A program made the translations under genes and the position numbers. This document shows positions 20,311-46,000 of a stretch of 64,000 nucleotides of DNA, piece after piece. The DNA comes from an uncultured Holophagaceae bacterium (GTDB lineage: Bacteria; Acidobacteriota; Holophagae; Holophagales; Holophagaceae). Location: contig CAIWKE010000011.1 of NCBI GenBank assembly GCA_903913215.1, forward strand, positions 1 to 64,000, read 5' to 3'. The stretch's first letter is position 1. Every line of letters starts with the position of its first letter. Under the pieces are notes generated by a model that was given only the letters and a program-made list of their open reading frames with translations, did no database searches and had not been told where the DNA came from.

Positions 20311-20386
20311 GCCTGGGTAGCTCAGTTGGTAGAGCAATGGATTGAAAATCCATGTGTCGGCGGTTCGATTCCGTCTCCAGGCACCA
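20311..20386 (+). tRNA. tRNA-Phe (anticodon GAA), CCA encoded
   Basis: gcctgggtagctcagttggtagagcaatggattgaaaatccatgtgtcggcggttcgattccgtctccaggcacca; anticodon arm atgga-ttgaaaa-tccat. Confidence 0.97.
20336..20386 (+). repeat. attL: 51-bp direct repeat (3' part of intact tRNA-Phe)
   Basis: aatggattgaaaatccatgtgtcggcggttcgattccgtctccaggcacca, identical to 45950-46000. Confidence 0.95.
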
Positions 20387-20402
20387 GTAACCACGCACTT
20401 CT

Positions 20403-20429
20403 AGCCCCGGCAACCAACCGGGGCTTTTT
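20403..20429 (+). terminator. Island-supplied terminator downstream of tRNA-Phe
   Basis: agccccgg-caaccaa-ccggggct followed by tttt. Confidence 0.8.
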
Positions 20430-20437
20430 GCTACTAC

Positions 20438-20459
20438 GCCACTTTGGCGCCACTTTGGC
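20438..20459. repeat. Tandem 11-bp repeat (possible integrase arm-type site)
   Basis: gccactttggc gccactttggc, just inside attL. Confidence 0.4.
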
Positions 20460-20581
20460 TCCGTACGCCTAACCACCACCCATCAAGGAGGGAGGCCGGT
20501 CGCCTTGTGGGACTTCGGGAGCGCTCAATCCTGTCGCCCCTGAAAACCCCGTTCAACCGATCAGGCAGCGATGAGGGCCTA

Positions 20582-20740
20582 CTAATGGTTAGAGTCGGCT
20601 TCGAGCAGGGCGATGAGGGCCTCGAACGCCTTCCGGGTTTCGCCCATAAGAAGGCGCAAAAGTGCACTGAAGTGAGCCAGGGACTTCCGCATGTTGTGGC
20701 CGGCATCGCAGAGGATGAAGTTTTGCGCGTTTCCGACCAC
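20582..20740 (-). pseudogene. Remnant of a transposase C-terminus (possibly IS5-like)
   Basis: Minus frame VVGNAQNFILCDAGHNMRKSLAHFSALLRLLMGETRKAFEALIALLEADSNH*, preceded by in-frame stop, no start. Confidence 0.45.
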
Positions 20741-20794
20741 TCACTCCCTTGTGTCAGTGGCCTGGCGTTTGAAATTCCAGCATGCAAGTGCACT

Positions 20795-42558: not shown

Positions 42559-42735
42559 ATGAACGATGACACTTGGATCCCGGCCGTGAACGAGTCAGAG
42601 GTGGTGGTCCCCGATCTTTTCTGGCCCCAGGCCCTCGGGGTTGATCCCGATGTTTGGGCAGAGGCTCAGGCCGCCAATGCTCAGACCTCGGTGCCCAGTC
42701 TGGAGGGCGCTGAGCTCGATCAGGGGCAACCGTGA
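42559..42735 (+). CDS. Small hypothetical protein
   Basis: MNDDTWIPAVNESEVVVPDLFWPQALGVDPDVWAEAQ..., upstream gaggaacg. Confidence 0.4.
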   Translation: MNDDTWIPAVNESEVVVPDLFWPQALGVDPDVWAEAQAANAQTSVPSLEGAELDQGQP

Positions 42736-42845
42736 AGCTATTCCTTTGGAATGCCTCGATGGATCTCCTCTGTGGGGATTGGAAAGGCTATGAGCGGGCC
42801 TATGATCCGGGTCATAGACTTGCTCATAGAAATTCGTAAGAGACT

Positions 42846-44492
42846 CTATTTCAATCGATATATGGTCCAACGGCGTTGGCCTTCCTGGACCAGATGTCCC
42901 TGGTCGACCAACCGCCCCAACAGGGTGCTCGCCTGCTTTTCCGTCAGCCCGCAGAGCTCGACGGCATCGCTTCTCTTGATACTGCCCTTGGTCTTGGCCA
43001 GCTTCAGAACCATGGCCTCATGGTGGATCATCTCGACACCTGTCTGGCGCACATAGGCGGCACTTTGGCCAAGTTCGCGATAGACCCGGGCCCCAAGGGT
43101 AAAGGTCCGGTCCCGGTTGGAGCCGTGGGCTTCCACCAGGCCAATCTCTACCAAACGCTCCAGCACACTTCGAGCAGAAGCCTCCGTTCGCTGGACCGCC
43201 AACGCGAGATCGCCAAACCCAAGGCGGCGCTCTCGGCGAAGGCAGGAAAGCACGATCAGGGCGTCCAGGGACAAAGGTTCCCCACGGCGCTTTTCTTCTG
43301 CGAGGACAACCCGCAGGAAATCAAGATCGGCCTGCCCGCCAAAGAGTTTGACGACCACGGAGGATCCGGTGGATCCGCCGTAGTCAGGAGCGGGCCTACC
43401 GAAGCGCAGGAGGCCCTCGTAGATGCGATCTACTCCACGGCCCGTCCGTTCCGCCAAGCCAATGCGCTTGAGGGCATCGGCGAGAACCGGGTTGCGTGGG
43501 GTCGGATCCACGGTCAGTAGATTGGCCGTGGTGACTCCATCAGGGAAGGGACCTGGGCTGCTGATCCGGATGCCATCCGATTCCCATAGCACCCGGACCA
43601 TCCCAAGTCGTGTGTAGTCTCGATGGACCAAGGCATTCACGAAGGCCTCTCGGAAGCCGCGTCGGTCGAAGTTCGGTACGGGCACCCTGAAGAGTCCAGA
43701 TTCCATCTCCTCTTCGCGGTAGCGCACATCGAACTGCTCTTCGACATGTTCGAACCATCTGAGCAGGGGCCATCGTTCGATGCGATTCACGAGAACATTG
43801 GTTCCCTCCATGACCTGGAAGGCGACCTCATGCGTGGGAAGATGGCTGGCGAGGGCCGAGGCCTTCCCGAGCAAGAGAAGCCCAGCAGCCGTAGGAACAC
43901 GCGTGCCCGTGCGAGATTGGACCAGGCCCAAGGCGCCATCGAGTTCCTCGTCCCCAAGGAAAAGCAGCGCCTGGTCTCCGCGGTAGCGTTCGATCATTTG
44001 CCGAAGCCGCGCTCGTTCGAAAGGGTCAAAATCCGAGATTGTCGCGGATTCCATCGGCAAGGCGGAGTAGTCCAGAAGACCGAGATCGCCCTGGCGGGTT
44101 ATCATCTCGGTGGGGAACACCGGAATGTCTTCGGGGGTGCCATCCTCTCGGAGCCGTCGGCGGAGAACTCGCCCATCGGAAGTGGCCACAAGAACCCTAC
44201 TCTTCGGGACCAGGAGTTGAGCAATGGTCATGCCCCCAAGGTCGATGCGCTCGACCCTAACGCTGAGGGGTGGACGCGTCCGGTTTGCCACCATGGCGGG
44301 AAGCCCCTCCAACTGGGCATGGGCAGCATGGAGTCCTGTCGGAGTTCCATCGTCTTCAACCCCGAGGTACAAGTCCCCACCCTCTGCATTCGTCATTCCG
44401 ACAAGGGATTCTACGAGGTCCCGGTCGGGAATTCGGGATCTGTCGGATTTGAACTCGCAGACGAGAGTTTCGGTGGTGGGCAGGGTGGGCAT
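42846..44492 (-). CDS. AlbA_2/Schlafen-type ATP-binding putative transcriptional regulator (RecG-like)
   Basis: ETLVCEFKSDRSRIPDRDLVESLVGMTNAEGGDLYLGVEDDGTPTGL; FREAFVNALVHRDYTRLG; GLAERTGRGVDRIYEG; C-terminal HTH regions. Confidence 0.85.
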   Translation of the reverse strand: MPTLPTTETLVCEFKSDRSRIPDRDLVESLVGMTNAEGGDLYLGVEDDGTPTGLHAAHAQLEGLPAMVANRTRPPLSVRVERIDLGGMTIAQLLVPKSRVLVATSDGRVLRRRLREDGTPEDIPVFPTEMITRQGDLGLLDYSALPMESATISDFDPFERARLRQMIERYRGDQALLFLGDEELDGALGLVQSRTGTRVPTAAGLLLLGKASALASHLPTHEVAFQVMEGTNVLVNRIERWPLLRWFEHVEEQFDVRYREEEMESGLFRVPVPNFDRRGFREAFVNALVHRDYTRLGMVRVLWESDGIRISSPGPFPDGVTTANLLTVDPTPRNPVLADALKRIGLAERTGRGVDRIYEGLLRFGRPAPDYGGSTGSSVVVKLFGGQADLDFLRVVLAEEKRRGEPLSLDALIVLSCLRRERRLGFGDLALAVQRTEASARSVLERLVEIGLVEAHGSNRDRTFTLGARVYRELGQSAAYVRQTGVEMIHHEAMVLKLAKTKGSIKRSDAVELCGLTEKQASTLLGRLVDQGHLVQEGQRRWTIYRLK

Positions 44493-44532
44493 AGGCCTTT
44501 CAATTCCTAGAAGAGGAAGGGACCAGTATCTC

Positions 44533-45816
44533 TCATCGGTTGCCGGTAGATCTCCCTCTCTTCCGCTGGGCAGCATTTGAGGTCCTCGGTTTGACCCGTT
44601 CACCAACCTTTGGCTTGCCTCCCTTCATGGCTTTTGCCATCCAATCCGCCGCGGCCTGGGAAGCCTCGCCAAGGATTCCTTCAGGTCCATATTGGATATA
44701 AGTGTCCTTAACCTTCCCTAGACTGTGACCAAGCAGGGTTTCTCCCACGCTGTCTGGAAAACCAAGTTCGCCGCAATGGCTGCGAAAGCTGCGCCGAAGA
44801 TCATGAAGCGTAAGCACCTCACCGTTGAGCGGCTCCAACTCTGCCTTTTCGCGGATGCGATCCCAGCATTTCCCCATGCCCTTGAACCGCCCGTCGGTGA
44901 TCGCACTCGGGAAAACATAGTCGCTGGTCTTAACTTCCTTACGCCGTTTGAGGATGGCCCGCAGGTGACTGTTGAGTGGGAGGACCTTGGGCCTGGTGCC
45001 GCCCTTGTCGGTCTTATGGGCATCGAATCGCATCAAATTGCGGCTCTCCCCTACGGCACCCCAGGTGAGGTCAAGGGCCTCGCCGCTGCGGAGCCCGGAA
45101 AAGGCGATGAACCGCACAAGGTCGGCAACGCTGGCGTCCAACTCCTTCGCTGCGACCAGCTCGGTGAGCGCTTTCTCCAGGCGTTCAAGTTCATTCACCG
45201 TGAAGGTCCGCTGCTTGCTCTTTTCGGTCGGTCTGGTGAACTTGTGGCAGGGATTGGTGGTCTCACGCCATCCTTCATTGATGGCAATGGTGATGAGGCG
45301 GCTCAAGATGGCTACAGCCCTGTTTGCCTGTGTGGGCGTGTCCTTCAATGCTTTGTGGAAGGCTCGGACATCCTCCAGGGATAGGTCCTTCACGAGCCGT
45401 TTACCGAGCCTCGGCAGGATGCAGGTCTTGAGAACAGAATTGTAGCTGTCCAAAGTGCTGGGCTTCAGATTGGGAGCGTAATCCTGCTCCCAAGTCTTCA
45501 CCACGGAGGTGATGTCCTTTGCGGAATTTTTTTCGGTGAGATGCGCCAAGATGTCCACGCCATCATCGTGAAGATCCCGGAGCTTCTTGGCCTTCTTCCT
45601 CGCATCGCCATCGTTCATGGTCTCCAGCGAGCCGAGCGTGGCGTTCACCTTTTTCCCGCCCCGATCGAACTGTACGATCCAGGATTTAACCCCCTTGGGG
45701 GTGACCCGGATGCCGAAGCCAGGGAGGTCGGCATCCCAGACCTTCACATCCCGGGTTCCAGGTTTCAGGCGTTGAACGAAAAAGTCGCTCAGGCGTTGTC
45801 GGCTTCGGTTGGACAT
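44533..45816 (-). CDS. Tyrosine-type site-specific integrase (DUF4102 N-terminus)
   Basis: VWDADLPGFGIRVTPKGVKSWIVQF; IAFSGLRSGEALDLTW; LTLHDLRRSFRSHCGELG; LLGHSLGKVKDTYIQY. Confidence 0.95.
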   Translation of the reverse strand: MSNRSRQRLSDFFVQRLKPGTRDVKVWDADLPGFGIRVTPKGVKSWIVQFDRGGKKVNATLGSLETMNDGDARKKAKKLRDLHDDGVDILAHLTEKNSAKDITSVVKTWEQDYAPNLKPSTLDSYNSVLKTCILPRLGKRLVKDLSLEDVRAFHKALKDTPTQANRAVAILSRLITIAINEGWRETTNPCHKFTRPTEKSKQRTFTVNELERLEKALTELVAAKELDASVADLVRFIAFSGLRSGEALDLTWGAVGESRNLMRFDAHKTDKGGTRPKVLPLNSHLRAILKRRKEVKTSDYVFPSAITDGRFKGMGKCWDRIREKAELEPLNGEVLTLHDLRRSFRSHCGELGFPDSVGETLLGHSLGKVKDTYIQYGPEGILGEASQAAADWMAKAMKGGKPKVGERVKPRTSNAAQRKRGRSTGNR

Positions 45817-45949
45817 GTCTTCCTCGTCACGGCACTTTCACGACACTTTGCCACGAGGTCCAACCTTTGACAAGGATTCCCAAGAATTCATAATTATCTT
45901 AAAAACAAATGACTTAGAATCATGGTTGGGAATCCTGATGAATCGACAT

Positions 45950-46000
45950 AATGGATTGAAAATCCATGTGTCGGCGGTTCGATTCCGTCTCCAGGCACCA
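45950..46000 (+). repeat. attR: 51-bp tRNA-Phe 3' duplicate
   Basis: Identical to 20336-20386. Confidence 0.95.

What the first reader, a model, noticed from the sequence alone, without database searches (positions are those of the whole stretch)
20336..46000. ~25.6 kb genomic island integrated at tRNA-Phe(GAA), exact 51-bp attL/attR
The 3' 51 nt of tRNA-Phe (20336-20386) recurs exactly at 45950-46000, with a tyrosine integrase (44533-45816) directly inside the second copy. The bases 5' of the repeat differ (c versus t), so the repeat is bounded. A terminator follows the tRNA on the island side, and a second hairpin terminator follows attR, as expected if the native tRNA terminator was pushed 25.6 kb downstream. 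The island ends are therefore set at base resolution.
Basis: seen in the sequence. Interest (0 to 1): 0.85.

Follow-up and report, generated by a model that had tools for sequence, protein, structure and literature searches.

The report
Mobile DNA island in Geothrix tRNA-Phe
A 25.6-kb block of mobile DNA has inserted into the only phenylalanine tRNA gene found in a Geothrix bacterium, repaired that gene as it landed, and brought second copies of peptide- and proline-eating genes; it is a well-delimited new example of a well-known kind of genomic island.

Summary
The island reading holds. A search with the two flanks joined gives one unbroken match across the predicted empty junction (20386|46001) in 20 of 47 Geothrix genomes, and one of them has AAACAAAGGCCCCC right after the tRNA, as the window has after attR. 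The element encodes a tyrosine integrase, a MobA/VirD2-type relaxase with MobC and a RepA-like helicase, and no recognised type IV secretion gene. It is therefore best read as an integrative and mobilizable element (IME). Its cargo (peptidases, TonB receptor, DUF2891, two-component pair, proline dehydrogenase) is largely second copies of host-family genes. Corrections: the crossover is not fixed within the 51 bp, and 46.0-52.7 kb is also absent from the matching site in relatives. New member of a known kind.

The parts
20311..20386 (+). tRNA-Phe(GAA), restored target gene at attL
   Evidence: ARAGORN; Rfam RF00005 70 bits; the only full-length match in the 3.9-Mb assembly
20336..20386 (+). attL identity block, 51 nt, anticodon stem to CCA end
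   Evidence: exact match to 45950-46000
20403..20425 (+). element-borne intrinsic terminator that would serve the restored tRNA
   Evidence: terminator scan; fold z = -4.0; absent at empty sites
20438..20459 (+). left arm-like pair GCCACTTTGGC x2, 11-bp period
   Evidence: same kind of pair at the right end and in three related elements
20795..22105 (-). Xaa-Pro dipeptidase (PepQ, M24)
   Evidence: NCBIfam NF010133 above cut-off; up to 81% to other Geothrix copies, 75% to own chromosomal copy
22418..25597 (-). TonB-dependent, Oar-like outer-membrane receptor (ORF; true start probably inside)
   Evidence: PF13620, PF07715, PF25183, PF00593
25603..26397 (+). LytTR-type response regulator
   Evidence: PF00072; PF04397 marginal, 22.3 versus cut-off 22.6 bits
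26365..26820 (+). decayed copy of the start of the histidine kinase gene
   Evidence: 84% identity over 456 bp to the region from 31115
27453..29567 (+). prolyl oligopeptidase (S9) with signal-like N-terminus
   Evidence: PF00326, PF02897; 73% to a second copy in own genome
29606..30715 (+). DUF2891 protein
   Evidence: PF11199 E 5e-133; 67% to own chromosomal copy
31165..32319 (+). LytS-type histidine kinase
   Evidence: PF06580
32373..33269 (+). proline dehydrogenase
   Evidence: PF01619; 66% to own chromosomal copy; separate from it in the tree
33540..34025 (-). DUF2798 membrane protein in a 43%-GC patch
   Evidence: PF11391; composition
36052..36996 (-). MobA/VirD2-type relaxase (ORF runs to 37236; likely start near 36996)
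   Evidence: PF03432 1e-14; relaxase motifs read in the translation
36993..37445 (-). MobC accessory protein
   Evidence: PF05713 above cut-off; adjacent relaxase/MobC pair in G001
39790..42126 (+). RepA-like helicase with a weak primase-like N-terminal half
   Evidence: PF13481; RepA 1g8y E 4e-4; LigD_Prim-Pol below cut-off
42846..44606 (-). Schlafen AlbA_2 / HATPase_c_4 regulator-like protein
   Evidence: PF04326, PF13749; phrog_12156
44533..45816 (-). tyrosine integrase
   Evidence: PF13356, PF14659, PF00589; alignment A1
45831..45852 (+). right arm-like pair GGCACTTTCAC GACACTTTGCC, 11-bp period
45867..45894 (+). outward promoter-like site TTGACA-16-CATAAT
   Evidence: 0.3 expected by chance; a lead only
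45873..45936 (.). perfect 11-bp inverted repeat with 42-bp spacer
   Evidence: 1 of 1000 shuffles as good
45950..46000 (+). attR identity block, displaced tRNA-Phe 3' fragment
   Evidence: Rfam hit
46007..46027 (.). displaced native tRNA-Phe terminator, terminator-like on both strands

Best explanation
The stretch 20336-46000 is an integrative and mobilizable element. Its tyrosine integrase recombined an attP carrying the 3' half of tRNA-Phe with the host's tRNA-Phe gene, rebuilding the tRNA at the left end and pushing the original 3' half and its native terminator 25.6 kb away. The integrase probably binds 11-bp-period arm sites just inside each end and exchanges strands within the tRNA core, most likely around the anticodon loop. 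The element brings its own terminator so that the restored tRNA transcript still ends. After excision as a 25,614-bp circle, the RepA-like helicase would maintain it and the relaxase with MobC would nick an oriT so that a helper conjugation system could move it. The cargo is an extra set of genes for taking up and degrading proline-rich peptides. Shown here: integration, empty site, repeated end architecture, gene families. Inferred: excision, arm-site binding, terminator function, mobilization, cargo function.
For: Exact 51-nt repeat with bounded ends. Empty junction in 20 of 47 Geothrix genomes and native terminator next to the tRNA in relatives. Integrase beside attR. Same geometry in independent elements: a 4.2-kb element of Geothrix limicola in tRNA-Met, 44% integrase, exact 51-nt repeat; G037 in tRNA-Phe, 46% integrase, 47-nt att; G040, 49% integrase beside a tRNA-Arg(ACG) 3' fragment. 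Period-11 pairs at both window ends are the only plus-strand hits of the pattern in 64 kb; background 9 in 663 kb of strand sequence. Relaxase, MobC and helicase families.
Against: No sister strain with the site empty was available; the empty sites are in other species at about 71-82% DNA identity. No oriT identified: only short, ordinary inverted repeats upstream of mobC. No VirB4 (PF03135) in any of 47 Geothrix genomes and no coupling-protein hit in the host's own genome, so a helper is unknown. The window is draft assembly; no read evidence for excision.
Confidence: 0.87

Rival explanations
1. It is a genomic island that integrated by the tRNA route but is now immobile: an old, partly decayed element whose relaxase and replication genes are remnants.
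For: Decayed kinase copy inside the cargo; several stretches without recognisable genes; no helper conjugation genes found in the genus.
Against: att repeats still exactly identical; integrase, relaxase and helicase frames intact; arm-like pairs kept at both ends.
Confidence: 0.25
2. It is a prophage or a phage satellite rather than a mobilizable element.
For: The integrase matches phage-type profiles; the Schlafen-like protein matches phrog_12156.
Against: No capsid, terminase, portal or tail family in the ORFs scanned with Pfam or PHROGs; relaxase and MobC present; the integrase family found nothing in 2.9 million viral contigs.
Confidence: 0.04
3. The repeat is coincidental or a duplication of a tRNA fragment, and the 25.6 kb is ordinary chromosome.
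For: Full tRNA-Phe duplications do occur at this locus in G031 and G018.
Against: The region is absent at the syntenic site in relatives, the junction matches the empty site, an integrase abuts the fragment, and GC drops.
Confidence: 0.01

Closest known systems
tRNA-targeting genomic islands of the anticodon-centred class (Islander database, PMC4383910)
   Same: Intact tRNA gene at one end, displaced 3' tRNA fragment at the other, tyrosine integrase inside; the core starts at the anticodon stem, the class that paper calls A (2,083 listed islands).
   Different: Integrase lies at the fragment end rather than beside the tRNA; host genus is Geothrix (Acidobacteriota).
Integrative and mobilizable elements, e.g. 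BcenGI2 in tRNA-Ala, NBU1, SGI1 (review PMC5704250)
   Same: Own integrase, own relaxase, plasmid-type replication protein, no mating-pore genes; RepA-type proteins are listed there for several IMEs.
   Different: No recognised helper in the host genus; cargo is extra copies of peptide and proline catabolism genes.
ICEKp1 of Klebsiella (PMC13023037)
   Same: Integration displaces the native tRNA terminator to the far end of the element.
   Different: In ICEKp1 the integrase sits next to the tRNA and is transcribed from the tRNA promoter; here the integrase is at the opposite end on the other strand, and the element supplies a replacement hairpin right after the tRNA.
Geothrix limicola Red804 4.2-kb element in tRNA-Met (L068; record NZ_BSDE01000005.1)
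   Same: 44% integrase, exact 51-nt repeat, replacement terminator, period-11 pairs at both ends, same orientation.
   Different: No relaxase or helicase recognised; different tRNA target.

Membership tests
tRNA-integrated genomic island (Islander type) | intact tRNA gene plus a tRNA fragment of the same gene in the same orientation | tested here: met
tRNA-integrated genomic island (Islander type) | integrase gene between them | tested here: met
tRNA-integrated genomic island (Islander type) | uninterrupted site in relatives | tested here: met
   20 of 47 Geothrix genomes
integrative and mobilizable element | encodes its own integrase and its own relaxase | tested here: met
   PF00589 and PF03432 with MobC
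integrative and mobilizable element | lacks its own mating-pore (type IV secretion) genes | tested here: met
   no such Pfam family in the island ORFs scanned; PF03135 absent from the whole genome
integrative and mobilizable element | oriT recognised by the relaxase | tested here: inconclusive
   only short inverted repeats upstream of mobC
integrative and mobilizable element | excision and transfer by a helper | not testable with these tools
   needs cells or reads; no helper found in the genus
integrative and conjugative element | complete conjugation machinery | tested here: not met
prophage | virion structural or packaging genes | tested here: not met

The most novel reading that the evidence does not exclude
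Geothrix and related Holophagaceae host a family of small mobile elements built on one attachment module: core from the anticodon to CCA, a replacement terminator between core and left arm, and 11-bp-period arm pairs (about GnnACTYTRG) at both ends. The module has been retargeted among tRNA-Phe, tRNA-Met and tRNA-Arg, and it keeps the integrase insulated from the tRNA promoter while integrated but places it downstream of the element's left end once circular, the reverse of the ICEKp1 arrangement.
Probability: 0.4. Interest if true: 0.5.

Novelty: new member of a known kind. Interest (0 to 1): 0.36.

Why it matters
The island is ordinary in kind but unusually well delimited, and it comes from a lineage (Acidobacteriota, Geothrix) for which the few literature searches made here turned up no described element of this kind. 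The shared attachment plan in four elements gives a concrete, testable rule for finding the ends of such elements. The replacement terminator is a clear contrast to ICEs that exploit a lost terminator to express their integrase. The combination of relaxase genes with no VirB4 hit in 47 Geothrix genomes raises the question of what moves these elements.

Tried and rejected
Single-sequence integrase search of 85,488 species genomes gave nothing; the alignment of four integrases gave only the three known Geothrix/Holophagaceae relatives above 30% identity. Viral contigs gave none. Cargo as a conserved operon elsewhere: not found; the paralogues of the prolyl oligopeptidase, DUF2891 and proline dehydrogenase lie in separate places. 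Cargo as a recent self-duplication: rejected, since the own chromosomal copies are only 66-75% identical and proline dehydrogenase groups apart from the host copy. A first version of that tree was wrong because the opposite strand was translated for some rows; discarded. Known defence system: only weak partial PADLOC matches to the Schlafen-like protein, not accepted. oriT by inverted repeats: inconclusive.
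Full report
What was claimed. All coordinates check out. ARAGORN finds tRNA-Phe(GAA) at 20311-20386 and no other tRNA in the window. The 51 nt 20336-20386 and 45950-46000 are identical and bounded by mismatches on both sides. The only longer exact repeat in the window is a 56-bp piece of a duplicated kinase gene. GC falls from 63.7% (left) and 67.7% (right) to 58.0% inside.

Empty site. The two flanks were joined (19701-20386 plus 46001-46700) and searched against 47 genomes of the genus. In 20 genomes a single alignment runs across the predicted junction, ending 16-42 bases into the right flank. 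Reading the bases after the tRNA in relatives shows a G+C-rich hairpin directly after CCA in most of them. In G033 it starts AAACAAAGGCCCCC, the same 14 bases that follow attR in the window. Relatives continue into homologues of 52696-53295, then mreB (53757-54812, 94-99% protein identity) and its neighbours. So the tRNA, the native terminator and the mreB side are the ancestral order. Most of the window's 46.04-52.69 kb, including a 1537-aa synthetase-like gene, is not at that place in relatives either (a few have a 39-44% match to 51839-52693); it lies outside the att repeats and is a separate lineage-specific stretch.

Identity of the host. A relative integrase locus, G006:C5, lies on a contig of the same length (326,319 bp) as a named record of Geothrix limicola Red804, so the genus is Geothrix (Acidobacteriota). 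The window's own genome is an unnamed 3.9-Mb assembly in 41 contigs.

What the element encodes. Backbone: integrase 44533-45816, relaxase and MobC 36052-37445, RepA-like helicase 39790-42126 with a weak primase-like first half, and a Schlafen/HATPase protein 42846-44606. The relaxase profile match is modest (PF03432, 1e-14), and the conserved relaxase motifs can be read in the translation. Cargo: Xaa-Pro dipeptidase, TonB receptor, LytTR regulator, prolyl oligopeptidase, DUF2891, LytS-type kinase, proline dehydrogenase. Several ORFs between 34 and 39.5 kb have no Pfam match. No phage structural family and no conjugation-channel family was found.

Where the cargo comes from. The dipeptidase, DUF2891, prolyl oligopeptidase and proline dehydrogenase each have a second copy elsewhere in the same genome at 75, 67, 73 and 66% identity. 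The dipeptidase, DUF2891 and proline dehydrogenase of the island are closer to copies in other family members (up to 81, 73 and 71% for full-length matches) than to the host's own; the oligopeptidase is equally close (73%). In a proline dehydrogenase tree the host copy groups with other Geothrix (99/98 support) and the island copy does not, though the island branch is long and its own position uncertain. The simplest reading is acquisition from a related Holophagaceae lineage, not recent self-duplication. That the cargo serves peptide and proline use is inference from gene families.

The attachment module. Four elements have integrases 44-49% identical to this one or are this one: this element; G. 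limicola in tRNA-Met with an exact 51-nt repeat 4,247 bp apart; G037 in tRNA-Phe, split over two contigs; and G040, whose integrase lies beside a 3' fragment of tRNA-Arg(ACG). In every case the core begins in the anticodon stem or loop and runs to the CCA end, the integrase starts near the displaced fragment and points away from it, and a hairpin follows the displaced fragment. Close to the integrase start lies a pair of about 11-bp repeats in tandem; where both ends are held (three elements) the same kind of pair lies just inside the tRNA end, in the same orientation. Aligned by eye the repeats read about GnnACTYTRG. A relaxed pattern for such pairs, drawn up after seeing these sites, hits the window three times, two of them at 20438 and 45831, the two ends; the background is 9 hits in 663 kb of strand sequence. 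Other integrases in the genus at about 30% identity also often have period-11 pairs upstream, so the feature may be wider than this family. That these are integrase arm sites is inference from position, spacing of one helical turn and the Arm-DNA-bind domain.

Terminators. At the tRNA end each of the three left ends held has a hairpin between core and arm pair (window 20403-20425, G. limicola, G037; folding z -3.6 to -4.3), unlike the native hairpin. So the element appears to replace the terminator it displaces. In ICEKp1 the opposite was shown: the terminator is displaced, and the integrase next to the tRNA is read from the tRNA promoter (PMC13023037). Here the integrase is at the far end on the other strand and the displaced native hairpin looks terminator-like on both strands. 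Once circular, the integrase would instead lie downstream of the element's left end. This switch is my inference; no promoter was found at the left end.

Mobilization. Relaxase plus MobC without mating-pore genes is the standard definition of an IME (PMC5704250). The helper is unknown: PF03135 (VirB4) hits none of 47 Geothrix genomes, with a positive control ringing, and PF02534 gives only weak partial hits in eight, none in the own genome. Many of these genomes are drafts, so a plasmid could be missing.

Verdict. Observation confirmed, interpretation supported with three corrections. A new member of a known kind; the shared attachment plan and the replacement terminator are the parts a specialist may want to test.

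Noticed in passing
window 47281-51894 (-): 1537-aa single protein with AMP-binding, carrier, hexapeptide-repeat and C-terminal 4'-phosphopantetheinyl transferase domains, just outside attR and not at the matching site in relatives; an unusual self-contained peptide-synthetase-like layout.
   Followed up: partly
window 45873-45936; L066, L069, L008: Perfect 10-11-bp inverted repeats with 42-58-bp spacers on the integrase side of the core in four loci, with unrelated arm sequences, but not in the G. limicola element. In the window one arm fills the spacer of an outward promoter-like site. Unexplained.
   Followed up: partly
L054 (G031) 658-733 and 5354-5429; L055 (G018) 16800-16875 and 18639-18714: Two complete, identical tRNA-Phe genes 4.7 and 1.8 kb apart at the same locus, each with its own hairpin.
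   Followed up: no
window 26365-26820: Decayed second copy of the start of the histidine kinase gene, 84% identical over 456 bp, separated from the intact copy by the oligopeptidase and DUF2891 genes.
   Followed up: partly
window 46446-46574: About 120 bp that recurs at 83-87% identity in several contigs of G037, G039 and G036; looks like a small dispersed repeat.
   Followed up: no
47 Geothrix genomes: Relaxase matches occur in ten genomes of the family search (nine in the genus) but no VirB4-type ATPase was found in the genus.
   Followed up: partly
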